From positions 1-60,650 of the forward strand of contig JAQTOI010000004.1 of assembly GCA_028713415.1 (NCBI GenBank): a stretch of 60,650 bases of DNA, given 5' to 3'. The notes under the pieces were generated by a model that was not told where the DNA came from, did not search any database, and was given only the letters and a program-made list of their open reading frames with translations. Each line of letters starts with the position of its first letter. Position 1 is the stretch's first letter. The position numbers and the translations under genes are program-made. Positions 8,312-59,004 of the stretch are shown here, one piece after another. Origin of the DNA: Candidatus Omnitrophota bacterium (lineage in GTDB: Bacteria > Omnitrophota > Gorgyraeia > Duberdicusellales > 4484-171).

Positions 8312-8688
8312 TCGAACCTACGACCTACTGGTTACAGGTATCCCTTAAATTACTTTAAGGCCTGGACTATCTCATCACCATACCCGTATTTAATACGGGG
8401 TTAGGCAGCGGGTATATAGTCTCTGCACATTTAGGTTAAAACTTTCGTTCTAACCACTTAGCTCAGGATTGCCCTTCCATTTGCATGGTGTAGGGGTTCC
8501 CTGAATTAGCCCGCTTTTTCAATCCCGATTTCTCGGGAAAGCTGCCAGAAATAGATCCTTCGACTCGGTCGTCCTATGGACTCCCTCGCTCAGGATCAAT
8601 TTGACTAAGTGCTTTTTCTACGCCTACGGCTTGAAAAACCACAAGTCTCATTGACAGCCAGCCGCTCTACCAATTGAGCTACCGGGGA
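8297..8688 (-). tRNA. tRNA-Asn(GUU), interrupted by a group I intron
   Basis: Exon 1 8654-8688 TCCCCGGTAGCTCAATTGGTAGAGCGGCTGGCTGT plus exon 2 8297-8334 TAACCAGTAGGTCGTAGGTTCGAGCCCTACCCGGGGAG gives a 73-nt cloverleaf with anticodon loop CUGUUAA. CCA not encoded. Confidence 0.95.
8335..8653 (-). other. group I self-splicing intron (IC3-like), between U35 and U36 of tRNA-Asn
   Basis: P/Q/R/S-like core: UAAUUCAGGGAACCCCUA, AAUCCUGAGCUAAGU, GUGCAGAGACUAUAUACCC, AUGAGAUAGUCCAGG; 5' splice after U; terminal omega-G (CCUG^UAACC); IGS candidate GCAGCU pairs with exon GGCUGU through a U.G. Confidence 0.92.
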
Positions 8689-29948: not shown

Positions 29949-31604
29949 TTAAACTGCAGCAAACTTGCGTGTTCTTCCGGAAGCCTTACTGCCGTTTCCT
30001 CTTCCGTTAGTTTTACCGTCAAGGATTGCCTCAGCCTCCTTACGATACGCATCCATAACGTAAGGGATGCCGGAAATCTTGGCAGCCTCTTCGGTTAAGC
30101 TCATTAAATCAGCTCTTGAAATAGTATTTACTCTAAAATTCCTGCTCCCTGCCATTAACTGCTGAAGCCCAACTCTAATTTTCTGCGCAAAGGAATAAAT
30201 TCCTATTGCGCCAAGAGGAATGTTGTCTATGCCTTTGCCGTATTTGTCCGCTAACTCCTCATAATAAACGAAGATCTCTTTTTCTGTACTGCCGAATTCC
30301 GAAACCGTAGGTGGAAGCTGATTATTCTTAATCCAGGTAGCAATGTTTTTGCCCACCATACCGGGAATCATTAGCGCTCTGCCCATGCATACTGCTTTCA
30401 CATAGGGCGAACCAAGAGCAATTGCTTTAAACACATGGTCTTCGCTCGAAAAGCCTCCGGCAATGGCAATATCCGGTAAACGCATTCCTTTTTTTCGTAA
30501 TTTTTCACAAAACTCGTAGGTTAATGCTTCTAAATAAAAAGTAGGTATACCCCACTCTTCCATCATCCTCCAGGGACTCATGCCTGTTCCGCCCGGCGCT
30601 CCGTCAATAGTCAAAAGGTCTATTTTGGCAAGCGAAGAATATTTTAATGCCATGGCGAGTTCTTTCATGGAATAAGCGCCTGTTTTCAAAGTAATTCGCT
30701 TAAAGCCAAGTTCTCTCAAGCGCGCCACTTCCGCCAGAAAAGACTCTTCGCTGACAAACCCCAGACGCGAGTGCCTTTCGAATTCCTTAAGCGCACCGTC
30801 TTTAAAGGCTTCTTGCGTTGCATGCACTGTAGGGTCGGGAGTGACAATGTATCCGCGTTTTTGTAACTGCGCTGCCCTCTCTAAACTCTTAACTTTGATT
30901 TCTCCGCCGATACATTTAGCGCCTTGGCCCCATTTTAATTCTATAGTATCTAATTTATGTTTTTTGCGCACATATTCCGCAACCCCTAAGCGCGTGTCTT
31001 CCACGTTCATTTGCACCAGTATCTCGCCAAATCCTTCATGGAATTTCTTATACACTTCGATACGCCTGTCCATCTCAGGGGAACTTTTAATTTTTCCTTT
31101 ATTGTCCAGCTCAAGAGCGGGATCAATACCGCACACATTTTCTCCGCATACGAGCGTCACGCCTGATATGGCAGCGCCTATCGCAAAATGTTCCCAGTTT
31201 TTACGCGCGACTTCCGTCGAGCCAAGCGCTCCCGTAAAAATTGGAGCACGCATTTTTACTTTAATGTCCCAGCCGTATTCCATTTCAGTGTCAACATCGG
31301 GAAACTTTGTCGTATCGGGATTGCCGTTTACCCCTTTAGGTAACCCCCGAGCGCCCTCGGCATATCCTTGGATATTAAGGTGAGAATAATCCACGGGATA
31401 ATCTTTATCGCCTCCTGCAGTCACCTCGCCAAAAGGTCCCGGATAAATTACTTCGCGGCCACGAAATGTTGCCTTAAACACTTCACAGTTACCTTTGCAA
31501 CCATCAATGCAACGCGAGCATATGCCTGAACCCGGCACAACGCTCTTGGAACGGTTAAACGTCCTTGTTGCGTCATTCGCATTTGGTCTTCCCAAATTCA
31601 TAGC
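29949..31604 (-). CDS. FMN-binding glutamate synthase-family protein with N-terminal Cys-rich segment
   Basis: ICSRCIDGCKGNCEVFK; DLLTIDGAPGGTGMSPWRMMEEWG; IAIAGGFSSEDHVFKAIALGSPYVKAVCMGRA. Confidence 0.9.
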   Translation of the reverse strand, partial: AMNLGRPNANDATRTFNRSKSVVPGSGICSRCIDGCKGNCEVFKATFRGREVIYPGPFGEVTAGGDKDYPVDYSHLNIQGYAEGARGLPKGVNGNPDTTKFPDVDTEMEYGWDIKVKMRAPIFTGALGSTEVARKNWEHFAIGAAISGVTLVCGENVCGIDPALELDNKGKIKSSPEMDRRIEVYKKFHEGFGEILVQMNVEDTRLGVAEYVRKKHKLDTIELKWGQGAKCIGGEIKVKSLERAAQLQKRGYIVTPDPTVHATQEAFKDGALKEFERHSRLGFVSEESFLAEVARLRELGFKRITLKTGAYSMKELAMALKYSSLAKIDLLTIDGAPGGTGMSPWRMMEEWGIPTFYLEALTYEFCEKLRKKGMRLPDIAIAGGFSSEDHVFKAIALGSPYVKAVCMGRALMIPGMVGKNIATWIKNNQLPPTVSEFGSTEKEIFVYYEELADKYGKGIDNIPLGAIGIYSFAQKIRVGLQQLMAGSRNFRVNTISRADLMSLTEEAAKISGIPYVMDAYRKEAEAILDGKTNGRGNGSKASGRTRKFAAV

Positions 31605-31752
31605 CCCTCCCTTTTCCCGGTCACACCCTGACCGATTGTCGCATAACAAAGCCAGCTTCTGCACGGCGCCACCATTGCGCCGGCGATAAGTTAAAAAGCT
31701 GTTGGCTTACAATGCCATGCCGTAAATCACCTTAAAAAATTCAAACAGCCTG

Positions 31753-32454
31753 CTATCTCTTAATCTCTTCAGCCAGTATGATTGCTTCTGCAACCTCACG
31801 CATAGTTTTGCGATTATCCATGCTGTATTTTCTTAATCTTAAGTAAGCCTGCTCCTCAGTGAGTCCTTCCTGCCGCATCAAAATGCCTTTTGCCCGCTCA
31901 ACACGTTTACGTATCTCTAATTCTTCCTGAATTACCCGCCCCTTTACCATAAGCTCAGCATTTTCGATAGCAACCGCTGCCTGGTTTGCTATAGAAGTCA
32001 AAACATTTATTTCCGTTTCGCTAAAATCATGCGGTTTGGAGGTATAACAATTAAGCACTCCGATAACTTTTCCTTTTACTGCCAAAGGGACGCATAGAAG
32101 CGAACATAAGCCCTCTCTTTTTGCAATATCTTTATGTTTATATTCTTTCTCTTTTGTAACATCTCTAATGATGAGTGGTTTATTGTCCCCAGCAACTCTT
32201 CCGGCAATCCCTTCTCCTATTTTTAACGGCGGTTTTTTGTTGTATTCCTCGCTAATGCTTTGTGTAGCTCTTATGACGAGCCCTTTTCTTTTTTCATCAA
32301 TAAGCATAAGCGAACAGATGTTTGAACCCATTGTCTCGGCAGTCACCGTCACCACGAGCCGAAGGATATCTTCTAAATACAAGTCCGAAACTATGGCTTT
32401 GCTAATCTTTGATAAAGCCTTTATTTGTTCTGTATATGTCGTACTTTCTTCCAT
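31753..32454 (-). CDS. GAF-ANTAR RNA-binding antiterminator
   Basis: GAF domain plus C-terminal ANTAR: KRVERAKGILMRQEGLTEEQAYLRLRKYSMDNRKTMREVAEAIILAEE. Confidence 0.93.
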   Translation of the reverse strand: MEESTTYTEQIKALSKISKAIVSDLYLEDILRLVVTVTAETMGSNICSLMLIDEKRKGLVIRATQSISEEYNKKPPLKIGEGIAGRVAGDNKPLIIRDVTKEKEYKHKDIAKREGLCSLLCVPLAVKGKVIGVLNCYTSKPHDFSETEINVLTSIANQAAVAIENAELMVKGRVIQEELEIRKRVERAKGILMRQEGLTEEQAYLRLRKYSMDNRKTMREVAEAIILAEEIKR

Positions 32455-32497
32455 GACGCACCATCAATAACGGTCTAAGTTATAGACACAGCTTAAA

Positions 32498-32693
32498 TAA
32501 AAAAAGGCGTTCTGCCCCCTAATGGGTTAGAACGCCTTCGTTCTCGAAAAATAAAAACGTCCTTCCTAGCAAACTATGCTGCCAAAAAGGACGTCGTTAT
32601 CCGGTATTTCTTACTCTGAAATAAGGGACGGTAAAAAGCGTTTCTAAAACGCCTTTGCCCCTTCTTGATAGTGCACAAACTTTGTGCTCTATC
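32498..32693 (-). promoter_or_regulatory. leader with three tandem terminators and ANTAR-type hairpins
   Basis: P1 GATAGAGCACAAAGTTTGTGCACTATC; T1 AAGGCGTTTTAGAAACGCTTTTT; P1' TATTTC-AGAGTAA-GAAATA; P2 GGAT-AACGAC-GTCC overlapping T2 ACGTCC...GGACGTTTTTA; P2 GAGAAC-GAAGGC-GTTCTA overlapping T3 GGCGTTCT...AGAACGCCTTTTTTTT. Confidence 0.8.
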
Positions 32694-32701
32694 TGTTTGA
32701 A

Positions 32702-32730
32702 TATTTAGCATATTATTTTAAACTTGTCAA
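32702..32730 (-). promoter_or_regulatory. sigma-70-type promoter of the ANTAR gene
   Basis: TTGACA-N17-TAAATA. Confidence 0.75.
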
Positions 32731-32750
32731 GTTAAATTGAAACTATGAAA

Positions 32751-34196
32751 TTAAATAGCGGGAAGATTGCTTGTACCCATCAAATATTTATCTATGCTGT
32801 GCGCGGCAGCTCTACCCTCGGCAATAGCCCAAACGATTAAGGATTGGCCTCTATGCATATCGCCGGCGCTAAATACGCCTTTTGTTTCCGTCATATAGGT
32901 TTCATCGGTCTTGACGTTTCCGCGCTCATCGAATTTCACGTTTAGTTCTTCTGTAAGCAGGCTTTTCTCTGGATGCAAAAAACCTATTGCTAAAATCGCC
33001 ATATCAGCTGTTATCTCAAATTCAGAACCAGGAATCTGGCGCATAACGGGACAAGCATTTTTATTATCGCTTACGAACTCAACTCTCACGCAGGATAGCT
33101 TTTCAAGGCAACCGTCTTTACCGATGAATTTTTTGGCGAGAACAGACCACTGCCGTTCTCCCCCCTCCTCGTGGCTCGTTGAGGTTTTAAGCAGCAACGG
33201 GTATTTGGGCCAGGTGCACGCGTCTGTACGGCAGGTGGCGGGTTTTGGCATTACCTCTATCTGTATTACACAGCTGGCTCCCTGGCGATGTGCCGTACCC
33301 ACGCAATCAGCGCCCGTATCTCCTCCGCCAATGACTACTACACGTTTACCTTTAGCGTCGATAATTTCATCGTTAGGTATTTTTTCTTTTTCCTGACGCC
33401 TGTTGGACTGTACTAAATAATCCATGGCGAAATAAATACCTTTCAAATCCCTACCTTCGATCTTTAAATCTCTAGGTATGCGCGAACCTCCGGATAGACA
33501 AATAACATCGAATTGTTTGATTAGTTTCGAGGTTTTATAGTCTAACCCGGCATTAGTACCCATTACAAATTCTATCCCTTCTTTCTCTAAGATTGCAAGC
33601 CTGCGATCAATAATCCATTTTTCCAATTTAAAATCCGGTATCCCGTAACGCATAATTCCTCCGGGACGCCTGTCACGCTCAAACACCACCACATTATGGC
33701 CTGCTTTATTTAACTGAGCTGCAACTGTAAGGCCTGCGGGTCCAGAACCGATAACGGCAACTTTTTTTCCGGTACGCGATTTCGGCGGCATTGCCCGGAT
33801 AAAACCGGCGTCGAATCCGTACTCAATTATCGATAATTCATTTTCCCGTATGGCAACGGGATCGTCATTTATGCCTAAAACACAGGCGTATTCGCATATG
33901 GCAGGGCACAGCCTTCCGGTAATTTCTGGAAAATTGTTCGTCGCATCAAGCAGCTGGAAGGCCCTTTTCCATTGACGGCGATAAACCAAATCATTCCACT
34001 CGGGGATATAGTTGCCTATGGGACAACCCCAATGGCAAAATGAAGTGCCGCAATCCATGCACCGGGATGCCTGCTCTCTTGCTTCATCGTCGGAACGCGG
34101 CAGCACTACTTCGCGATAATCCTTAAGGCGCGTGCATACCGGACGATATTTTGTCTCCTGCCGTTTAAACTTTAAGAAACCTTTTATATCACCCAT
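32751..34196 (-). CDS. gltD: glutamate synthase small subunit
   Basis: CMDCGTSFCHWGCPIGNYIPEWN, GSGPAGLTVAAQL, GGGDTGADCVGTAHRQGA. Confidence 0.95.
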   Translation of the reverse strand: MGDIKGFLKFKRQETKYRPVCTRLKDYREVVLPRSDDEAREQASRCMDCGTSFCHWGCPIGNYIPEWNDLVYRRQWKRAFQLLDATNNFPEITGRLCPAICEYACVLGINDDPVAIRENELSIIEYGFDAGFIRAMPPKSRTGKKVAVIGSGPAGLTVAAQLNKAGHNVVVFERDRRPGGIMRYGIPDFKLEKWIIDRRLAILEKEGIEFVMGTNAGLDYKTSKLIKQFDVICLSGGSRIPRDLKIEGRDLKGIYFAMDYLVQSNRRQEKEKIPNDEIIDAKGKRVVVIGGGDTGADCVGTAHRQGASCVIQIEVMPKPATCRTDACTWPKYPLLLKTSTSHEEGGERQWSVLAKKFIGKDGCLEKLSCVRVEFVSDNKNACPVMRQIPGSEFEITADMAILAIGFLHPEKSLLTEELNVKFDERGNVKTDETYMTETKGVFSAGDMHRGQSLIVWAIAEGRAAAHSIDKYLMGTSNLPAI

Positions 34197-34198
34197 TT

Positions 34199-34284
34199 TC
34201 AGCTTTCAGCTTTCAGCTGTCAGCTCTCAGCTTTCAGCTGTCAGCTCTTTCGTGTTTCTAAGCTGATAGCTGATGACTGATAGC
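34199..34284. repeat. word-like inverted repeat (AGCTGATAGCTGA type)
   Basis: agctttcagctttcagctgtcagctctcag...ctgatagctgatgactgatagctgatagct. Confidence 0.85.
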
Positions 34285-34292
34285 TGATAGCT

Positions 34293-37200
34293 TTATCCAT
34301 CCGACACTTCCACTAATTCCGGACTCTTTCTCGTTTTCTTAGCCGAAAGGATGCGTTTGTATTCTAGAGGCATTACTTTCACAAACTTTTTTATTTCTTT
34401 CGTGAAATTATCAATAATTTTTTTGGCAAGTAAGCTTCCGGTATATGTGTAATGAGCGTGCAGCGACTTATGGATAAAAGTTTCATCCTCCCTTGAAATA
34501 GCCTCTAAAGCCACCATTTCCATATTGCATTTTAGTTTGAAATTTTCCGCTTCATCTAAAATGTAAGCAATCCCGCCAGACATTCCGGCGCCGAAATTCC
34601 TTCCGGTAGCGCCTAGAATAATGACTCGGCCTCCTGTCATGTACTCGCATGCGTGGTCGCCAACACCTTCAATTACGGCATTCAGCCCTGAATTGCGTAT
34701 GCAGAACCTCTCTCCGGCAACACCCCTGATATAAGCTTCGCCGCTAGTAGCTGCGTAGAAAGTGGTATTACCGATTATTATGTTGTTCTCTGGCGTATAG
34801 TCAGTCCGTTTGTCGGGGCGAATAATTATTTTTCCACCTGATAGGCCCTTACCGACATAATCATTTGCCAGGCCTTCTAATTCAAAAGTTATACCTTTAG
34901 CCAGAAATGCGCCAAAGCTCTGGCCAGCGACACCCCTAAATTTGAACTTGATGGTATCGTCTTCCAAGCCTGCCTCTCCGTAACGGCTAACCAATTCTCC
35001 GCTTAAGCGGCTGCCTGTGGCCCTATCAGTATTATGGATGGGAAATTCAGCTAAGACACTCTTGCGCGCTGCTAATGCGTCCGTTGCATGTTTAATCAAG
35101 GTTAAATCCAATATCTTATCGATACCATGCTCCTGCACTCTGCCGCAACGCACGGCCACATTTTCAGAAACATCGGGTTTATAAAGAATTTTGGAAAAAT
35201 CTATATGTTTTGCTTTCCATGGTAAAATCGCGGAGTTAACGCTAAGTAAATCCGTTCTGCCGATTAATTCATCAAGCCTGATGGCTCCTAAACTTGCCAT
35301 AATTTCGCGTAATTCTTGCGCAACAAAATGAAAATAATTAATGAGATATTCCGGTTTCCCCATAAAACGCTTTTCCAGAATCTCATCCTGCGTGGCAACC
35401 CCTACGGAGCAATTATTTAAATGGCAATGACGCAGCATCACGCATCCGCAAATTATTAGAGCCGCGGTGCAGAAGCCAAACTCTTCAGCCCCCAACATTG
35501 CCGCAATGGCAACGTCGCGGCCGGTGCGCATCTGGCCATCAGTCTGCAGGCGGACGCGCGAACGTAAATCATTCAATACGAGCGTCTGGTGCGCCTCTGA
35601 TAAACCCAGCTCCCAGGGCAAACCTGCGTGCTTTATAGAGCTTAGAGGCGAAGCGCCGGTGCCGCCGTCTCCTCCGGAAATAAGAATCATATCCGCATGC
35701 CCCTTAGCTACGCCGGCAGCTATAGTGCCAACGCCAATCTCCGAAACAAGTTTCACGCTGATACGCGCCTTGGGGTTTATATTTTTTAAATCGAAAATCA
35801 ACTGCGCCAAATCCTCTATAGAATAGATATCATGATGCGGCGGAGGCGATATCAAAGTAACTCCCGGCGTAGTATAACGCGTGCGGGCGATAATCGCGTT
35901 TACCTTATGCCCGGGAAGCTGCCCACCCTCTCCCGGCTTTGCCCCTTGAGCAATCTTTATCTGCAGCTCATCGGCGTTAACAAGGTAATTGGCGGTAACG
36001 CCGAAACGGCCCGATGCCACCTGTTTTATTGCGCTGCGCAAAGAATCTCCATTGGCTAAAGGCACAAAACGCGCAGGATCTTCTCCTCCTTCGCCGGTGT
36101 TAGATTTTCCTCCTAATTTATTCATAGCGATAGCCAGCGTCTCATGAGTTGCCTTGCTTATGGAACCAAAGCTCATCGCGCCGGTTGCAAAACGTTTAAA
36201 TATATTCTCAACAGGCTCAACTCTATCAATTGAGACAGGAACAATCCCCTTAGCATCAAAAGAAATTTTCAATAAGCTGCGCAATGTTGTGGGGCTTTTT
36301 GATTGATCGTTAATGAGGCTACAGAATTCTTTATATTTGGCATAATCGCCTAAACGAGTTGAATCCTGGAGCCTCGAGATTGTCTCAGGGTTCCAGAGAT
36401 GAAATTCACCGTCTCTTCGCCAATAATAAAGGCCCTCTGTGGCAAGATAGGGTTTGGCTGCCTCGGCGCTGCTGTATGCCGCGCCATGGCGCATAATGGC
36501 CTCTTTGGCGATTTCTCCGAAGCCCACGCCACCAATGCGCGAAACGGTGCCGGTAAAACAGGCATCTATAACTTCCTCATTTACGCCCAATGCCTCAAAA
36601 ATTTGCGCTCCGCGGTAACTCTGCAAGGTTGATATGCCCATTTTAGAAATAATTTTAAAGATACCGGCGCAAACCGCCTGGACGTAGTTATGGAGTGCCT
36701 TATCGTAATCCATTTTGAGGTCTCCGGATTCAAGTAACGAATTAATGGCTTCATAAGCCAAATAAGGATTAATACAATCGGCGCCGTATCCAAATAATAA
36801 AGCAAAATGATGCACCTCTCTGGGCTCTGCGCTTTCTACGATTATCCCTGCACTGCTGCGTAAAGCCTTATTTAAAAGATGCTGATGCACCGCCCCCAGG
36901 GCTAAAAGGGCAGGTAACGCAGCGTAGTCAGGCGCCAGCCCGCGGTCACTTAAAACTATAAAGGTGCAGCCTTCCCTTATTGCCCTTACTGCTTCTTTAC
37001 ATATTCTTCTAAGCGCAATTTTAAAATTTTTTCCAGCAACTCCTTGCGAGCCTTTGACGGAAAAAAGAATAGAGATTACTTTTGTTTTAAAACCATTCGT
37101 ATTTATGCCCTTAATCCTTGCGCAATCAAAATTAGTTAAAATAGGATTTTTAATTTCCAGTTTATGGCAATGCATGGGTGTTTCTTCAAGAAGATTGCGC

Positions 37201-38846
37201 TCTGCTCCAACATAACTGGACAAGCTCATTACTACCTGCTCGCGTATAGGGTCAATTGCCGGATTAGTTACCTGCGCAAAAAGCTGCTTAAAGTAAGTGT
37301 ATAGAAGCTGGGGCTTATATGAAAGCACGGCATGCGGTGTATCGTCACCCATAGAACCTACCGGCTCCTTGCCTTCCTCTGCCATGGGTTTAATAATCAT
37401 CTTCAAATCCTCACGGCTATAGCCAAAAGCTTTTAGCAGAGTAAGCGAATCTTGTATCGGTTTCTGTTCTATCTTTGGCTTTGGGAGAGAGCTTAACGAA
37501 AGCATATTTTCTTTAATCCATTTGCCGTAGGGTTTCCAATTCGCTGCTTTATCCTTTATGTCCGAGTCGTTAACAATATGTCCGGCCTGCGTATCCACGA
37601 AAAATATTTTCCCCGGCTCAAGACGCCCGGAAACCAGTATATTAGCCGGATCAATATCCAATACCCCCATTTCTGAAGCCATAACAACAAAATCATCTTT
37701 AGTAACAATATAACGGGCCGGCCGCAGCCCGTTTCTATCCAAACTTGCACCCACATTAACGCCGTCGGTAAACGCTATTGCCGCCGGGCCATCCCATGGC
37801 TCCATAAAACAGGTATGGTATTTATAGAAGCTTTTTATGTTCGCATCAAGAAGGTTATTCTGCTCCCAGGCATTCGGGATAAGCATCATCATAGACTGTA
37901 TCAGGTCTCTCCCGCTTAAGGTAAGCAGTTCAAATACATTATCTATGGCAGCGGAATCGCTGCCCCCAGGCACAACGACAGGTTTAATTTTCTCTATATC
38001 TGTTTTGAATAAATCACTTTTTAGTAATTTTTCTCTCGCGCGCATCCAATTTATATTTCCGCTCAATGTGTTAATTTCTCCGTTGTGAGCAAGGAAGCGG
38101 AACGGCTGCGCCAAATCCCAGGTAGGGAAGGTATTGGTGCTATAGCGCGAATGCACAAGGCAAATCGCGCTCGCTAAAGAAGAATCCCTGAAATCAAGAA
38201 AGAATTTCTCCAACTGCCCGGGCATAAGCAGCCCTTTATAAGAAAAAGTGCGGCTGGAAAGATTGGTGATATAAAAAAATGATTTTTGGCTAAGAGCGCA
38301 AGCGCGTATAGTATTTTCTATCTGTTTGCGTATGCAATATAGTTTCCTTTCGAAAGCTAAAGAACCACTGTGATTTCTGGAGGCGATAAAAACCTGCTCA
38401 ATTTCCGGTTTGGTTTTACGCGCGGTTTCTCCAATAACGGTGTTGTCGACAGGCACTTTCCTCCACCCTAAAAGAACCAGGCCTTCCTCTTCTATGGTTT
38501 TAGAAAAAATATTTTTGCAGAAGTTGCGTTCAGGCTCTGTCTGCGGCAAAAAAACCAAACCTGTGCCGTAGAAACCAGCTTGCGGCAAATCTATTTTTTG
38601 TTCTTTACACGCGGACGCAAAAAAATCATGAGGAATCTGAATTAATATTCCCGCGCCATCACCCGTCTGGGGGTCAGCTCCGGTTGCTCCACGGTGAGAG
38701 AGCCGGCGCAGAACTTCCAGCGCTTGCTTAACGATAGTATTTGTTTTTCTGCCTTTAATATCACACACAAACCCTACGCCGCAGGAGTCGTGCTCGAATC
38801 GCGGGTCATATAAGCCCTGTTTTTTGGGAAAATGAGTGTAGTTCAT
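34293..38846 (-). CDS. gltB: glutamate synthase large subunit
   Basis: HDSCGVGFVCDIKG N-terminal GATase; KPGEGGQLPGHKVN; ISGGDGGTGASPLSSIKHAGLPWELGL. Confidence 0.97.
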   Translation of the reverse strand: MNYTHFPKKQGLYDPRFEHDSCGVGFVCDIKGRKTNTIVKQALEVLRRLSHRGATGADPQTGDGAGILIQIPHDFFASACKEQKIDLPQAGFYGTGLVFLPQTEPERNFCKNIFSKTIEEEGLVLLGWRKVPVDNTVIGETARKTKPEIEQVFIASRNHSGSLAFERKLYCIRKQIENTIRACALSQKSFFYITNLSSRTFSYKGLLMPGQLEKFFLDFRDSSLASAICLVHSRYSTNTFPTWDLAQPFRFLAHNGEINTLSGNINWMRAREKLLKSDLFKTDIEKIKPVVVPGGSDSAAIDNVFELLTLSGRDLIQSMMMLIPNAWEQNNLLDANIKSFYKYHTCFMEPWDGPAAIAFTDGVNVGASLDRNGLRPARYIVTKDDFVVMASEMGVLDIDPANILVSGRLEPGKIFFVDTQAGHIVNDSDIKDKAANWKPYGKWIKENMLSLSSLPKPKIEQKPIQDSLTLLKAFGYSREDLKMIIKPMAEEGKEPVGSMGDDTPHAVLSYKPQLLYTYFKQLFAQVTNPAIDPIREQVVMSLSSYVGAERNLLEETPMHCHKLEIKNPILTNFDCARIKGINTNGFKTKVISILFSVKGSQGVAGKNFKIALRRICKEAVRAIREGCTFIVLSDRGLAPDYAALPALLALGAVHQHLLNKALRSSAGIIVESAEPREVHHFALLFGYGADCINPYLAYEAINSLLESGDLKMDYDKALHNYVQAVCAGIFKIISKMGISTLQSYRGAQIFEALGVNEEVIDACFTGTVSRIGGVGFGEIAKEAIMRHGAAYSSAEAAKPYLATEGLYYWRRDGEFHLWNPETISRLQDSTRLGDYAKYKEFCSLINDQSKSPTTLRSLLKISFDAKGIVPVSIDRVEPVENIFKRFATGAMSFGSISKATHETLAIAMNKLGGKSNTGEGGEDPARFVPLANGDSLRSAIKQVASGRFGVTANYLVNADELQIKIAQGAKPGEGGQLPGHKVNAIIARTRYTTPGVTLISPPPHHDIYSIEDLAQLIFDLKNINPKARISVKLVSEIGVGTIAAGVAKGHADMILISGGDGGTGASPLSSIKHAGLPWELGLSEAHQTLVLNDLRSRVRLQTDGQMRTGRDVAIAAMLGAEEFGFCTAALIICGCVMLRHCHLNNCSVGVATQDEILEKRFMGKPEYLINYFHFVAQELREIMASLGAIRLDELIGRTDLLSVNSAILPWKAKHIDFSKILYKPDVSENVAVRCGRVQEHGIDKILDLTLIKHATDALAARKSVLAEFPIHNTDRATGSRLSGELVSRYGEAGLEDDTIKFKFRGVAGQSFGAFLAKGITFELEGLANDYVGKGLSGGKIIIRPDKRTDYTPENNIIIGNTTFYAATSGEAYIRGVAGERFCIRNSGLNAVIEGVGDHACEYMTGGRVIILGATGRNFGAGMSGGIAYILDEAENFKLKCNMEMVALEAISREDETFIHKSLHAHYTYTGSLLAKKIIDNFTKEIKKFVKVMPLEYKRILSAKKTRKSPELVEVSDG

Positions 38847-38950: not shown

Positions 38951-39331
38951 TTAATAAATCTTCCACTTTTTCGCTTCAACCGCGAGTTTTTTAATTTTCG
39001 CGGCCAAAGTATTGCGGTTAATCCCTAAAAGCTGCGCTGCTCTTAATTGATTGCCCGCGGTGCGCTCAAGCGCCGTTTCTATCAGGCTTTTTTCTATCTC
39101 TCCCAGCGCCCTCTTATAAATTTCACCGCCATTATTGCTAAATAACATATTTTTAAGCTCAAATGCACGTTCGCCTAACATTGAGCGGGTAGAAGAATCA
39201 GCCTTCTTGACTATTTTTATAATCCCACCGCTTACAGGTTCGTCAACAAAAGAATAACCCTCTTTTTTGAGCGCCTGCGAAAACAACTCGTAAACCTTTC
39301 TTTCTTCTTCAAGTACCAAAACCGTAATCAT
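38951..39331 (-). CDS. Fis/NtrC C-terminal-type HTH protein lacking an AAA+ domain
   Basis: EIEKSLIETALERTAGNQLRAAQLLGINRNTLAAKIKKL. Confidence 0.8.
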   Translation of the reverse strand: MITVLVLEEERKVYELFSQALKKEGYSFVDEPVSGGIIKIVKKADSSTRSMLGERAFELKNMLFSNNGGEIYKRALGEIEKSLIETALERTAGNQLRAAQLLGINRNTLAAKIKKLAVEAKKWKIY

Positions 39332-40170: not shown

Positions 40171-42366
40171 TCATTTAATAAACAACATTTCTCTGTATTT
40201 TGGCAAATCCCAGTGCTCGTCGGAAATCACGCACTCTAAATCATCAACGTGCTTTCTGATGTGTTCCATTAAAGGCTTCAGTCCCTCAAAGTAAAGTTTA
40301 CCTTTTTCTTCCGCGCTAAGGCCTGCGCATTTTTTGAGCAGTTTTATCATTTCTTTAGTGTTGCGCCTCACGTAATAAATTTTGGAAATAACTTCGCTTA
40401 GATGTTCACCCTGATCCTTCAGGGCTTCATTTGAAAACTTTAACTTAGCATTTTTTGTTAGGTTTATAAGCCCGCCGAGATTATCCTCAAGCAGTTTTGC
40501 GTATTCAAATCCGGACGGAATGACGCTCGCATTTACCATTTCATTTAAAGTATTAGCCTCGATTTCCAACACTAAAGTGTACATGTGCACCCAAATGTGG
40601 TAACGGGCGACTATTTCATTTTTGCTAAAAACCTTATACTTCTCAAATAATGCTATATTCTCTTTTTTGACGAAAGCTTTAAGAGCTTCACAAGTTGAAG
40701 CAACATTAGGAAGCCCTCTTTTCTTTGCTTCCTCCAGCCAGTTTTGTGCGTAGTTGTTGCCCTCAAAACGGATATCTTGCGTTTCTTTTGCCACCTGTGC
40801 TATAACCTGTAAAACCGCTTCATTAAAATCTTTGCCGCTGCCGTTGGCCTTTTTTATTTTTTCCGCTACATAATCGAGGCTTTCTGCCACGATTGTGTTA
40901 ATGATGGCAATGGAAGTTGAAATATTCTGCGATGAGCCGACTGCCCGAAATTCGAACTTTGCTCCGGTAAAAGCAAAAGGTGAAGTCCGGTTTCTGTCCG
41001 TCATATCTTTATCAAACTGCGGAAGCCTCGCCAAACCCAGGTCAATGACATAATGTTTGGATATCTCTTTTTTGGCGCCTTTAGCGATCGTATCAAGGAT
41101 TTTGCTAAGCTGCTCTCCCAGATAAACGCTGATTATTGCCGGCGGAGCCTCATTGGCGCCCAGGCGGTGTTCATTGCCCGCCAGAGCGACACCGGCGCGT
41201 ATAATATCCGCGTGAAGATAAACTGCGCGCAGCACTGCCACCAGCACCGCCAAGAACTGCAAATTACCTTCGGGGGTTTGCCCTGGATTAAGCAAATTGC
41301 TACCCAGGTTATCCGCAAGCGACCAATTCAAGTGCTTACCGCTTCCGTTAATGCCGGCAAAAGGTTTTTCATGCAGGAGACAGACTAAATTATGCCTGAG
41401 CGCTACTTTTTTCATCAAATCCATCATCAACTGATTATGGTCAGCGGCGATATTAGACTCTTCAAATATCGGAGCAAACTCATACTGATGCGGAGCTACC
41501 TCATTGTGCCTGGTCATCAAGGGAATACCTAATTTATAGGCTTCCTCGGCAACCTCAAACATGAAATTTAATACCCTCTCCTTTATTGTGCCGAAATACT
41601 GGTCTTCCAACTGCTGGCCTTTTGGTGACGCAGCCCCCACCAATGTTCTTCCGGCCATAAGCAAGTCTTGGCGAAGATTATAATAATACTTATCAATAAG
41701 AAAATATTCCTGTTCCGGGCCGCACGTAGAAAATACCTTCTTTACATCTTTGTGCCCAAAGAGTTTAAGTAAGCCTACCGCAGCCTTGCTTAAGGCCTCA
41801 TCCGAACGCAAAAGAGGAAGTTTAGCGTCCAACGCCTCTCCATGATAAGAAATAAATATCGTGGGTATGCAAAGTGTTTTTCCAAGCGCGCTCTCAATAA
41901 TAAAAGCCGGGCTCGACGGATCCCAGGCCGTATAACCCCGCGCTTCAAAGGTAGCGCGGATACCGCCTGAAGGAAAACTGCTTGCATCAGGCTCACCCTG
42001 TATTAGTTTATTTCCGGAGAATTTTTCAATTACTTTGCCTGGGCCTGTAATCGAGATAAAACTATCGTGTTTTTCGGCAGTCAAACCGGTCATTGGCTGA
42101 AACCAGTGAGTATAATAAGTAGCGCCCTTTGAAATAGCCCATTCTTTCATGGCATTAGCTATTTCGTTAGCCTGCGTCAAAGTAATAGTCTTTCCTTCAG
42201 ACATCCAAATTTTAAAAGCCTCAAAAGTTTCCTTTGAGATATGTTTCTGCATCGTCTCGATGCTAAAGGTATTTTCTCCGAAATAAGTTGAGACTTTCTT
42301 GGGCAAATCAATTTTATTCAACTGCACGCTTTTTATCTTGAATAATGCTTCTTGCCTTACTGCCAT
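40171..42366 (-). CDS. glnN: glutamine synthetase type III
   Basis: ~731 aa; FPSGGIRATFEARGYTAWDPSSPAFI, GPEQEYFLID, GINGSGKHLNWSLAD, NRTSPFAFTGAKFEFRAVGSSQN. Confidence 0.93.
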   Translation of the reverse strand: MAVRQEALFKIKSVQLNKIDLPKKVSTYFGENTFSIETMQKHISKETFEAFKIWMSEGKTITLTQANEIANAMKEWAISKGATYYTHWFQPMTGLTAEKHDSFISITGPGKVIEKFSGNKLIQGEPDASSFPSGGIRATFEARGYTAWDPSSPAFIIESALGKTLCIPTIFISYHGEALDAKLPLLRSDEALSKAAVGLLKLFGHKDVKKVFSTCGPEQEYFLIDKYYYNLRQDLLMAGRTLVGAASPKGQQLEDQYFGTIKERVLNFMFEVAEEAYKLGIPLMTRHNEVAPHQYEFAPIFEESNIAADHNQLMMDLMKKVALRHNLVCLLHEKPFAGINGSGKHLNWSLADNLGSNLLNPGQTPEGNLQFLAVLVAVLRAVYLHADIIRAGVALAGNEHRLGANEAPPAIISVYLGEQLSKILDTIAKGAKKEISKHYVIDLGLARLPQFDKDMTDRNRTSPFAFTGAKFEFRAVGSSQNISTSIAIINTIVAESLDYVAEKIKKANGSGKDFNEAVLQVIAQVAKETQDIRFEGNNYAQNWLEEAKKRGLPNVASTCEALKAFVKKENIALFEKYKVFSKNEIVARYHIWVHMYTLVLEIEANTLNEMVNASVIPSGFEYAKLLEDNLGGLINLTKNAKLKFSNEALKDQGEHLSEVISKIYYVRRNTKEMIKLLKKCAGLSAEEKGKLYFEGLKPLMEHIRKHVDDLECVISDEHWDLPKYREMLFIK

Positions 42367-42514: not shown

Positions 42515-42615
42515 AAAAATAAAAAAGCGTTCATATAACCAATTCATTGGCTATTTGAACGCCTTCGTTCTTTAAATCTCCTGATTTTATTGCCTTTTAG
42601 CACTACTTTGTGCCA
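42515..42615 (-). promoter_or_regulatory. ANTAR-type leader and terminator upstream of glutamine synthetase
   Basis: P1 TGGCAC-AAAGTA-GTGCTA (A1/G4 hexaloop); P2 GAAC-GAAGGC-GTTC overlapping terminator GCGTTCAAATAGCCAATGAATTGGTTATATGAACGCTTTTTTA. Confidence 0.8.
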
Positions 42616-42844
42616 GTATCCCGGCTACCTATATACAAGTAAAGAAATAAGCGTTCTGGTAACCTAAGGTATATTTAAATTGTAGTTTGAGCGTATTGAC
42701 ACCGTAAAAGCGCAAAGGAGACGCAAAGGCGCAAAAAGGAAGAAATCCCATAATTTGAAACTGTTTTTTTTCGATTTTTTTGCGATTTTGCGGGATTTTG
42801 CGGCTTTGCGGTGTCCAAAATGTTATATTCCTAAAAGAACTAAA

Positions 42845-55641: not shown

Positions 55642-56961
55642 TTATTCTAATACCGTATACGCCCTTTCACGATGCTGTGTAAGATCTAATCCGATAAGCT
55701 CTTCTTTCTCGCTTACTCTCACCCCCATTACCTTATCAACTATCTTATAAATAATAAAAGTAACGGCAAAAGCGTACGCCGCGCAAATTAACACTGTAGC
55801 CAATTGAATCAAGAATTGCTGCGGATTGCCGAAAAATAAACCATTAGCTCCTGCTGGATTTACCGCTTTTGAAGCAAATAAACCCGTTGCCAGAGCGCCC
55901 CAAATGCCACCTATGCAGTGCACACCGAAAGCGTCCAGCGAATCGTCGTAACCAAATTTAGGCTTAATAACACTGACTGCCGTATAACAGAATATGCTCA
56001 CCAATATGCCGATGAGTATCGCTGGTATCACACTGACAAATCCTGCTGCAGGGGTTATCGCCACCAGGCCTGCCACAGCGCCGCTGGCAACTCCAAACAT
56101 AGTGGGTTTTCCGTTGCGCAGCCATTCTAAAAGCGCCCAGCTTAAACCTGCAGCGGCAGCAGCGGTATTCGTCACTACAAACGCATTAACAGCTATGCCG
56201 TTTGCGGCCAGCGCGCTTCCCGCATTAAAACCGAACCAACCAAACCAGAGCAATCCAGTCCCCAGCACAATAAACGGCAAATTATGCGGCGCAGGGGTGT
56301 TGCTGTCCAGGTTCTTTCTTTTACCGATTACAAGCGCGGTTGCCAGGGCAGCAATACCTGCGTTTATGTGCACCACTGTGCCACCGGCAAAATCAAGCGC
56401 GCCCATATTACGCAGCCAGCCGCCGATACCCCAAACCCAATGGCACATAGGGTCATAAACAAAGGTAGCCCAAAGCACCGTAAAAACCACAAATGAAGAA
56501 AATTTCATTCTTTCGGCAAACGCGCCGATAATTAATGCCGGAGTGATTATCGCAAACATCGCCTGAAATATCATAAAAGCCTGGTGAGGAATAGTGCCGG
56601 CGTAATCCGCGTAAGGCTCTAAGCCTACTCCGTTTAAGCCTGCCCAGCCCAAACCTCCCCAGAAACCTTTACCGGGAGCAAATGATAAACTATAGCCGAA
56701 CAATACCCATTGAATGCTTAATACCGACATAACAATAAAACACTGCATTAGTATGCTGAGCATATTTTTCCTTCGCACCATTCCGCCGTAAAAAAATGCC
56801 AAGGCCGGAGTCATAAGCAACACAAGCGCCGAAGAAATCAAAACCCAGGCAGTATCCCCGCTATTGACAACAGCTGCTCCGTCTAGCGCAAACACCGGGA
56901 ATGCCGCGGGAACACACAGTATCAAGACAAGCACCAACGCTACCAGAAAGAATTTTTTCAT
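55642..56961 (-). CDS. amtB: ammonium transporter
   Basis: [61 protein letters not shown]. Confidence 0.96.
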
Positions 56962-56984: not shown

Positions 56985-57770
56985 TTATTTATTTTTTAAA
57001 AACTTACTAAACAAATCAAAATCGATATCTATCTGCAAGGTAACTGTGTCAGCAAGATTGGAATTATTGTAGCGGTTGTAGCCTGCAATCGCGCAAACTG
57101 CATCGGAAAACTTCCAAGAAAAACCGTAGCTCCAGGCGCCGTAAGAACTCTTTGTGCCCATATATTCTGCGCAGAGCCAAAGCCGATCAGAGATTTCAGG
57201 AATGCTCCGTTCCCATGCGGCAAACAGTCCATTGTTATCCTTTTCCCCGGACCCGTTTAAAAGTAGTCTTGAATTCCCTTGAAAATATCCCGCCGAAAAC
57301 CTCCCTAATGAAAAATCTTTTACCGCTATTGTTTTTGCACCCTTTGCATAAAAAACATTATTGTCAGTTTTGTTGTGCTCCGTGCCTATGTCATAAATTC
57401 CTATTGCCAGGGCAGGAAATAATTTACCGAAAGAGTCTTCAGGAACGCCTATCTTGGCATTAAAATATATCGGGTAATCGTCAAGATCTCCCAAGCCGCT
57501 TTTATGATCGAAACCAAGTTCCATATTTAATTTGCTAAAAGGTAAAATTCCGGCTGTTAAGCCTAGGTTGGTAATGGTATCCGGCCGCGCGCCCTGCGAA
57601 TCCCTTTCTGAGGCAAGATATAAATCACTGGTTACATGCATAACCCCGTATTTCTGCACATCCGTGGACGGCGCCCAGATATGTGTTGTAGGAGTCGGGT
57701 AAGAATAATTCGAAAACAAAAAACAAGAAGCCAAAACCATTAAACAGCTCAATAGACCTTTTTTACGCAT
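56985..57770 (-). CDS. exported (outer-membrane-like) hypothetical protein
   Basis: Signal peptide; beta-rich 261-aa sequence; lies between PII and amtB. Confidence 0.65.
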   Translation of the reverse strand: MRKKGLLSCLMVLASCFLFSNYSYPTPTTHIWAPSTDVQKYGVMHVTSDLYLASERDSQGARPDTITNLGLTAGILPFSKLNMELGFDHKSGLGDLDDYPIYFNAKIGVPEDSFGKLFPALAIGIYDIGTEHNKTDNNVFYAKGAKTIAVKDFSLGRFSAGYFQGNSRLLLNGSGEKDNNGLFAAWERSIPEISDRLWLCAEYMGTKSSYGAWSYGFSWKFSDAVCAIAGYNRYNNSNLADTVTLQIDIDFDLFSKFLKNK

Positions 57771-57784
57771 AGGCTCCCTCCTCT

Positions 57785-58105
57785 TTAAAGTATCGCCTCA
57801 TCCTTTCTTTCTCCGGTCCTTATCCTCACACAATCTTCCATGGGTAAAATAGCTATCTTACCGCTTCCAAATTTCCCATCATTGCAATGGCGCGTAATTA
57901 CTTTCACCGCATCCTCTGCTTGGCTGTCGGTTACATACATTTCGAGCTTAGTTTTGGGCAAAAATAAGTAATTTTCCGGGCGCGTTACCTCTCTGCCGAA
58001 ACCTTTAACTTCTGTAACCGTAAGCCCGGCTATGCCTTCCAAAAGAAGCTCATCGGTTAGTTTTTTTAAGTTTTCCGGCCTGATAATGCATTCTACCTTT
58101 TTCAT
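57785..58105 (-). CDS. PII-family nitrogen regulatory protein
   Basis: MKKVECIIRPENLKKLTDELLLEGIAGLTVTEVKGFGREV...SGKIAILPMEDCVRIRTGER. Confidence 0.93.
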   Translation of the reverse strand: MKKVECIIRPENLKKLTDELLLEGIAGLTVTEVKGFGREVTRPENYLFLPKTKLEMYVTDSQAEDAVKVITRHCNDGKFGSGKIAILPMEDCVRIRTGERKDEAIL

Positions 58106-58300: not shown

Positions 58301-58410
58301 AAAAAAAAGACGTCTTTGCATCCATGCGAAGGATTCAAAGACGTCTCTGTCTTAAAAAAGAGAAGCCGTTCTTTTTAGGAACGGCTCTGTTTCTACACAA
58401 CAATGTGCCT
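58301..58410 (-). promoter_or_regulatory. ANTAR-type leader with two tandem terminators upstream of PII/amtB operon
   Basis: P1 GCAC-ATTGTT-GTGT; P2 GAAAC-AGAGCC-GTTCC overlapping terminator GAGCCGTTCCTAAAAAGAACGGCTTCTCTTTTTT; second P2 AAGAC-AGAGAC-GTCTT overlapping terminator AGACGTCTTTG...CAAAGACGTCTTTTTTTTT. Confidence 0.8.
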
Positions 58411-58482
58411 TAGCTGCTACGGTAATACAAGTAAGAAATATTTGTTTTTGGTAACCAATTTAGGCGTAAAACGGAAACTATA

Positions 58483-59004
58483 TTATAAAATTTCTTCTTT
58501 AAAGGCAGCGCATTTTTCTTTTATCCTATTGAATAACTTTACAACCATGACATGAGAAATTCCCAGACGCCCGCCTATTTCTCTAGTTGTGAAATTCTTT
58601 AAATAAAGCTCCATTACCTCTTTTTCTCTTATGGTGAGGCAGCGCTCGATATCCTGGAGCAAAAGATTAAACCGCGAGAATTGTAAAACTCCCTCGTTTT
58701 CTAACGGCAAAATATCCTCAAGCGTACCGTTAGCCTCATTAATATTTTTCTCCAGGCTTAAGCAACGCTTATCGAGCCGCGTATGGGCTTTACGAATGTA
58801 ATTTTTCAAGAAAAAAAAGCACCCCTGCAAAATATAGCTATCTGTTTTATCTTGTATCTGATTCTCCCTGTATTTCTCCCATAACGAAAACAAAGCTTCC
58901 TGATAGAGATCATCGTCATTAAATGACGTATATTTTCCGTCAAGTTTAATGGCTATGCCTTTTAATTTGGGTTTTATTCGCTTAACTAAATCTTCAAAAT
59001 TCAT
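58483..59004 (-). CDS. sigma-70-like RNA polymerase sigma factor
   Basis: DDDLYQEALFSLWEKY; LTIREKEVMELYLKNFTTREIGGRLGISHVMVVKLFNRIKEK. Confidence 0.8.
   Translation of the reverse strand: MNFEDLVKRIKPKLKGIAIKLDGKYTSFNDDDLYQEALFSLWEKYRENQIQDKTDSYILQGCFFFLKNYIRKAHTRLDKRCLSLEKNINEANGTLEDILPLENEGVLQFSRFNLLLQDIERCLTIREKEVMELYLKNFTTREIGGRLGISHVMVVKLFNRIKEKCAAFKEEIL

What the first reader, a model, noticed from the sequence alone, without database searches (positions are those of the whole stretch)
42515..42660. ANTAR-type leader upstream of type III glutamine synthetase
SEEN: TGGCAC-AAAGTA-GTGCTA (6-bp stem, A1/G4 hexaloop), then AGAAC-GAAGGC-GTTC overlapping terminator GCGTTCAAATAGCC...GGTTATATGAACGCTTTTTTA. 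The P2 sequence GAACGAAGGCGTTC is identical to the third one in the ANTAR-gene leader. The stretch before P1 (GGTTACCA...ATTTCTTTACTTGTAT) is also shared with the PII leader. INFERENCE: glutamine synthetase is a trans target of the ANTAR protein encoded ~8 kb away.
Basis: partly seen in the sequence, partly recalled or inferred. Interest (0 to 1): 0.8.

Follow-up and report, generated by a model that had tools for sequence, protein, structure and literature searches.

The report
Two-gate nitrogen switch before glutamine synthetase
In an uncultured Omnitrophota bacterium, the stretch before the glutamine synthetase gene is a switch known in other bacteria (an RNA terminator that an ANTAR protein can disarm), but here it sits behind a strongly conserved promoter that appears to belong to a dedicated sigma factor, so nitrogen assimilation seems to pass two gates in series.

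Summary
On the minus strand before the type III glutamine synthetase gene lie P1 (TGGCAC[AAAGTA]GTGCTA), P2 (GAAC[GAAGGC]GTTC) and an overlapping terminator. A covariance model built without any window sequence ranks this leader first in the whole 2.17-Mb genome (38.3 bits, E 1.5e-5) and the PII leader second. The dual-hairpin-plus-terminator structure recurs before GSIII, glnA, amtB, PII and glutamate synthase genes across Omnitrophota and some Elusimicrobia. In 40 leaders picked only by an upstream DNA motif, 19 pass a fixed structural test, against 0.02 for shuffles. Stems show compensatory changes, and 26 of 27 RNA-positive genomes carry an ANTAR gene. ANTAR control of nitrogen genes was already known from other bacteria.

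It co-occurs with an ECF-like sigma factor encoded beside it (68 of 75 genomes). Likely mechanism: a dedicated sigma starts transcription, then GAF-ANTAR lets polymerase past the terminator. Binding, sigma specificity, signal and which of two ANTAR paralogues acts are untested. Departures from the Eut model: R1 loops, linkers mostly 14-30 nt, some 7-nt P1 loops.

The parts
42634..42663 (-). Promoter-like element GTTACCA-N15-TACTTGTA of the GSIII leader
   Evidence: One of only 2 in the whole genome; fixed length in 56/56 loose matches; 139 sites in 75/285 phylum genomes, control 2
42598..42615 (-). P1 hairpin TGGCAC[AAAGTA]GTGCTA, hexaloop with A1 and G4
42557..42570 (-). P2 hairpin GAAC[GAAGGC]GTTC, loop with G1 and G4; its 3' arm overlaps the terminator
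42521..42563 (-). Intrinsic terminator, about -19.5 kcal/mol, with a T6 tract, mutually exclusive with P2
40171..42366 (-). Type III glutamine synthetase; the likely start is the ATG at 42366 behind AAGGAGGT (the ORF tool starts at a TTG, 42381)
   Evidence: Pfam GSIII_N E 1.9e-75; sequence
31753..32454 (-). GAF-ANTAR protein, candidate antiterminator
   Evidence: Pfam ANTAR 7.1e-21, GAF_2 1.3e-25; alignment to EutV, NasR and Rv1626
32634..32687 (-). ANTAR-gene leader, module 1: P1 GCAC[AAAGTTT]GTGC (7-nt loop), weak P2 C[AAAGGC]G, terminator GCGTTTTAGAAACGC-TTTTT
32548..32623 (-). ANTAR-gene leader, module 2: P1 TATTTC[AGAGTAA]GAAATA, P2 GGAT[AACGAC]GTCC, terminator 32595-32556
32499..32583 (-). 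ANTAR-gene leader, module 3: P1 AGC[ATAGTTT]GCT inside terminator 2, P2 GAAC[GAAGGC]GTTC, terminator 3
   Evidence: 14.6 bits with model R2
58426..58455 (-). Promoter-like element of the PII leader
58353..58409 (-). PII leader: P1 GCAC[ATTGTT]GTGT, P2 GA(A)AC[AGAGCC]GTTC, terminator 1
   Evidence: Model R2 25.6 bits
58301..58354 (-). PII leader, second module: P2-like AAGAC[AGAGAC]GTCTT overlapping terminator 2, with no P1 of its own
   Evidence: same layout in several relatives
58483..59004 (-). ECF-like sigma-70 family factor directly upstream of the PII leader
   Evidence: NCBIfam TIGR02937 51.7 bits, cut-off 42.9
57785..58105 (-). PII protein behind the second leader
   Evidence: Pfam P-II 7e-23
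55642..56961 (-). Ammonium transporter AmtB, same cluster
   Evidence: Pfam 9.1e-134
29949..38846 (-). Glutamate synthase genes (large 34293-38846, small 32751-34196, FMN-domain homologue 29949-31664) on the same strand downstream of GSIII; the ANTAR gene and its leader lie among them

Best explanation
The leader is an ANTAR-responsive transcription attenuator placed behind a dedicated nitrogen promoter. (1) An ECF-like sigma factor (58483-59004 and its relatives) directs RNA polymerase to GTTACCA-N15-TACTTRTA, so transcription starts upstream of P1 [inferred from co-occurrence and adjacency]. (2) In the new RNA the 3' arm of P2 also forms the 5' arm of a terminator; without help the terminator wins and transcription stops before glutamine synthetase [structure shown by conservation, outcome inferred]. 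(3) When a GAF-ANTAR protein is active, it takes hold of the P1 and then the P2 loop through the invariant G4, stabilises P2, and polymerase reads on into GSIII and the genes behind it [inferred from EutV]. (4) The GAF domain probably senses a nitrogen signal such as glutamine or 2-oxoglutarate [inference, weakest step]. The same protein family probably also controls its own gene through three attenuators in a row in this genome.
For: Leave-out model R2: best hit in the whole genome, E 1.5e-5. Structure test in promoter-anchored leaders: 33/75 against 0.0 in shuffles, and 19/40 against 0.02 in leaders fetched afterwards and picked by the DNA element alone. Covariation: 5 of 8 pairs with changes on both sides, 12 cells against 2.3 in shuffles, 0/500. 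Loop G4 in every accepted leader (a search criterion) and invariant in alignments A1 and A2. Target genes: 71 of 75 sites lie before GSIII, AmtB, GlnA, Glt, PII or their operon partners (the GSIII share is inflated by how loci were fetched). RNA and ANTAR gene: 26/27 against 59/90, p 7e-4. ANTAR residues matching EutV R142, K143, K149, E160, Y164, R168, M172, R175 are kept; K147R, N173D, R177T (with PMC8934654). Promoter element: fixed spacing, 139 sites against 2 control hits, 68/75 with the sigma gene against 14/210, 47 of 83 sigma genes with the element 6-163 bp downstream.
Against: No binding or transcription data. In this leader P1 loses by about 1 kcal/mol to an upstream hairpin, though P1 is in the fold of 32 of 33 leaders. 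P2 here has G1, which with C6 could collapse the loop. The P1-P2 linker is 27-29 nt, whereas 14 nt already failed for EutV (PMC3369931). Some GSIII leaders with the element lack P1 (L006, L008, L013, L014, L015, L146). Ten of 117 class genomes have the sigma but no element. The p-values ignore shared ancestry.
Confidence: 0.82

Rival explanations
1. The leader is a plain protein-independent attenuator or a simple terminator behind a promoter; P1 and P2 are incidental parts of a longer fold.
For: The terminator alone is stable; some relatives keep a terminator without P1.
Against: P1, which does not overlap the terminator, is conserved with compensatory changes and a G4 loop; the RNA co-occurs with ANTAR genes.
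Confidence: 0.07
2. The upstream element is the binding site of an activator (for example GlnR-like, since GTTAC is part of GlnR boxes) and not a sigma-factor promoter.
For: GTTAC and TTTAC form a direct repeat 20 bp apart; GlnR regulates nitrogen genes in actinomycetes and the letters GTTACC occur in a GlnR paper (PMC3087709, found by search only, not read).
Against: Repeat spacing is 20, not the 22 I recall for GlnR; the spacing is rigid, as in -35/-10 pairs; it is tied to an ECF-like sigma gene in 68 of 75 genomes and 47 sigma genes have it directly downstream.
Confidence: 0.2
3. The leader is a true ANTAR target, but the protein acting on it is the paralogue encoded after glnA on contig C99, not the window ANTAR.
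For: That ANTAR is GAF-ANTAR, linked to glnA, with the key residues kept.
Against: The window ANTAR sits in the same cluster and its own leader carries the identical P2.
Confidence: 0.3

Closest known systems
ANTAR dual-hexaloop antiterminator RNAs: EutV targets of Enterococcus faecalis, NasR/nasF, AmiR/amiE (Ramesh et al. 2012, PMC3369931; Walshe et al. 2022, PMC8934654)
   Same: P1 plus P2 with G4 loops, P2 overlapping an intrinsic terminator, ANTAR protein in the genome, nitrogen genes downstream
   Different: Loop position 1 is A or G; P1-P2 linkers in GS-type leaders are mostly 14-30 nt instead of 5-12; some P1 loops have 7 nt; some modules lack their own P1; the ANTAR is fused to GAF, not to a phosphorylated receiver; a dedicated promoter element precedes the leader
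Nitrogen regulons of Desulfotomaculum acetoxidans and others predicted by Ramesh et al. 2012
   Same: ANTAR RNAs before PII, ammonium transporter, glutamine and glutamate synthase genes; several per genome
   Different: Other phyla; no linked sigma factor reported in the passages read
ECF sigma factors (TIGR02937)
   Same: Regions 2 and 4 in about 170 aa; linked short -35/-10-like motif of fixed spacing
   Different: Adjacent to PII/amt leaders and tied to ANTAR attenuators; ECF group not determined here

Membership tests
ANTAR-target dual-hairpin RNA | Two small stem-loops, each of at least 3 bp | tested here: met
   P1 is 1 kcal/mol off the best fold in this leader
ANTAR-target dual-hairpin RNA | Hexanucleotide loops with A1 and G4 | tested here: inconclusive
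   G4 met in both loops; A1 met in P1, but P2 has G1, a variant also seen in relatives
ANTAR-target dual-hairpin RNA | P2 overlaps the 5' side of an intrinsic terminator | tested here: met
ANTAR-target dual-hairpin RNA | P1-P2 linker of 5-12 nt (eut system) | tested here: not met
   27-29 nt here; 38 of 39 linkers of this layout in relatives exceed 12 nt (the pattern used required at least 8). This defines the eut targets, not the family as searched by Ramesh et al., who allowed a variable linker
ANTAR-target dual-hairpin RNA | An ANTAR protein is encoded in the genome | tested here: met
   Two genes
ANTAR-target dual-hairpin RNA | ANTAR protein binds it and prevents termination | not testable with these tools
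   -
ANTAR RNA-binding domain | Residues that hold the G4 base in EutV | tested here: met
   R142, K149, E160, Y164 and the M172 plug identical in the window protein (PMC8934654)
ECF sigma factor | Sigma-70 regions 2 and 4, about 170-200 aa | tested here: met
   TIGR02937 over its cut-off; Pfam r2/r4 hits below cut-off; low-confidence fold model best matched by sigma factors
ECF sigma factor | Recognises the linked promoter | not testable with these tools
   Only co-occurrence and adjacency

The most novel reading that the evidence does not exclude
Omnitrophota run nitrogen assimilation through a two-gate circuit not described in the papers searched here: a dedicated ECF-like sigma factor that reads GTTACCA-N15-TACTTRTA, in series with GAF-ANTAR antitermination on the same transcripts, with the sigma gene itself embedded in the regulon.
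Probability: 0.65. Interest if true: 0.72.

Novelty: new variant of a known kind. Interest (0 to 1): 0.6.

Why it matters
It gives a concrete, testable nitrogen-control circuit for a widespread phylum reported as not yet isolated, and extends ANTAR attenuation to Omnitrophota and Elusimicrobia. It also challenges two rules taken from the eut system: the short P1-P2 linker and A at loop position 1. If the sigma link holds, it would be an unusual case of an ECF-type sigma factor devoted to ammonium assimilation, coupled to RNA-level control of the same transcripts.

Tried and rejected
Rfam has no family for this leader: nothing at gathering level, and weak unrelated hits at low threshold. A strict scan of GSIII upstream regions with contiguous terminators found only 8 of 51; this was too strict and was replaced by the promoter-anchored test. 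Covariation within GSIII leaders alone is uninformative because the stems are nearly invariant. Whole-genome candidates outside the window (C104, C63, C67, C41) score near chance. The glnA leader on C99 shows no convincing P1-P2 (by eye). I looked for triple attenuators before ANTAR genes of relatives and found none, so the triple array seems confined to this genome or its close kin. A linker motif ARGCA is only weakly enriched (14 of 39 against 8.4). The sigma model is of low confidence (mean pLDDT 66), so its fold matches are supportive only.

Full report
WHERE. The window is a 60.65-kb contig of a Candidatus Omnitrophota metagenome-assembled genome: its close GSIII relatives carry that name, and its whole assembly is 2.17 Mb in 160 contigs. 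All genes of interest read on the minus strand. GSIII (40171 to ATG 42366) is followed by a glutamine amidotransferase, a Fis-type protein, glutamate synthase large and small genes, a GAF-ANTAR gene and a second glutamate-synthase-like gene. About 16 kb upstream lie an ECF-like sigma gene, PII, an unknown protein, amtB and another PII.

OBSERVATION. P2 occurs letter for letter in the ANTAR-gene leader and nowhere else in the window. The leader folds far better than shuffles (z -6.6). Two details need correcting: P2's loop begins with G rather than A, and P1 is about 1 kcal/mol short of the best fold here because its 5' arm can pair with GCCGG upstream.

IS IT AN ANTAR TARGET? GSIII leaders of relatives show the same P1-linker-P2-terminator. 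A covariance model from 37 sequences of other genomes (A2, R2) finds the window GSIII leader first in the genome (38.3 bits, E 1.5e-5), the PII leader second (25.6 bits) and the third module of the ANTAR-gene leader next at 14.6 bits, which is not significant on its own. For a test that does not use the RNA to pick sequences, I anchored leaders on the upstream DNA element. 33 of 75 pass a strict P1+P2+terminator test, with none in 50 shuffles of each. The 75 include loci fetched through GSIII or through model R1. I therefore fetched 40 further leaders chosen only by the element: 19 pass, shuffles 0.02. By eye most of the rest have a relaxed form. Stem pairs change on both sides in 5 of 8 pairs; as stems of at least 3-4 bp were required when most sequences were chosen, that count leans towards the structure. 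In a class-wide sample, 26 of 27 RNA-positive genomes have an ANTAR gene against 59 of 90 others; the exception, G082, is 81% complete.

THE PROTEIN. The window ANTAR aligns with EutV, NasR and Rv1626. Using the EutV-RNA structure paper (PMC8934654), the residues around the flipped G4 (R142, K149, E160, Y164) and the M172 plug are identical; K147 is R, N173 is D, R177 is T. In that structure G4 is the only base-specific contact, which fits the tolerance for G at loop position 1 seen here. The N-terminal GAF domain resembles those of PtsP and NifA; a glutamine or 2-oxoglutarate signal is my inference from general knowledge of those proteins.

THE UPSTREAM STRETCH. With the spacer left free it had the same length in 56 of 56 matches, and in a larger set the gap between GTTACCA and ACTTGTA was 16 in 111 of 112 (most of that set had been fetched with the spacing fixed). 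There are two in the whole genome, at GSIII and PII. Across the phylum there are 139 sites in 75 of 285 genomes, with 2 hits for the reversed-pattern control. A sigma-70/ECF-like protein encoded directly upstream of the PII leader (58483-59004; TIGR02937 over its cut-off) has relatives in 82 of 285 genomes; 68 of the 75 element genomes have it against 14 of the other 210. In 47 of 83 cases the element starts 6-163 bp downstream of the sigma gene on the same strand. Fisher values (5e-14 and 5e-43) ignore common ancestry and should be read as descriptive. Genes behind 75 element sites: GSIII 24, AmtB 19, GlnA 10, Fis/Glt/GATase 10, an unknown protein 7, PII 1, unassigned 4; the GSIII share is inflated by the search that fetched those loci.

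MECHANISM. Best reading: sigma-directed start, default termination, ANTAR-stabilised P2 and read-through. Shown: sequence, structure conservation, co-occurrence, conserved protein residues. Inferred: binding, direction of control, sigma specificity, signal, and which ANTAR acts.

OTHER LEADERS IN THE WINDOW. The ANTAR gene has three attenuator modules in series, with 7-nt P1 loops that still carry A1 and G4. GCAC[AAAGTTT]GTGC recurs as P1 in other genomes. Its promoter looks sigma-70-like (TTGACA-17-TAAATA), by eye only; the consensus scan does not list it. The PII leader has a second P2-terminator without its own P1, a layout repeated in several relatives.

AGAINST THE KNOWN. Ramesh et al. 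2012 (PMC3369931) defined the dual-hairpin motif and already predicted it before PII, ammonium transporter, glutamine and glutamate synthase genes in other bacteria, so the leader itself is a member of a known kind. What differs: loop position 1 (R instead of A), linkers mostly 14-30 nt where eut uses 5-12 and 14 nt failed, 7-nt P1 loops, modules without P1, GAF in place of a receiver, and a linked promoter and sigma factor. No paper in the held library names ANTAR together with Omnitrophota, and none of those found links ANTAR to an ECF sigma factor for nitrogen (judged from titles and abstracts); subscription journals are mostly missing from that library.

Noticed in passing
58301-58354: Second P2-terminator module of the PII leader has no P1 of its own; the same layout recurs next to sigma genes in relatives such as L133, L136, L144, L157, L169 and L171.
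   Followed up: partly
32499-32687: Three attenuator modules in series before the ANTAR gene itself, all with 7-nt P1 loops; not seen before ANTAR genes of relatives.
   Followed up: partly
L006, L008, L013, L014, L015, L146 (GSIII leaders): Promoter element kept but P1 missing, followed by a further promoter-like TTGTGGTAAAAT after the terminator; perhaps leaders released from ANTAR control.
   Followed up: no
L004 1030 and 1237: Two element-plus-leader units in tandem before one GSIII gene.
   Followed up: no
42571-42597: The long linker in the window GSIII leader holds a small hairpin AAATC-AGGA-GATTT; L005 and L027, with about 50-nt linkers, also hold hairpins there, which might shorten the effective distance.
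   Followed up: partly
56985-57770: Protein of unknown family, no Pfam or NCBIfam hit, lying behind the same element in at least 7 leaders; possibly part of the ammonium regulon.
   Followed up: no
38951-39331: Small Fis/NtrC-C-terminal-like protein in the GSIII-glutamate synthase cluster; homologues often lie directly behind an element-plus-leader unit.
   Followed up: partly
8343-8564: Group I intron (Rfam 91 bits).
   Followed up: no
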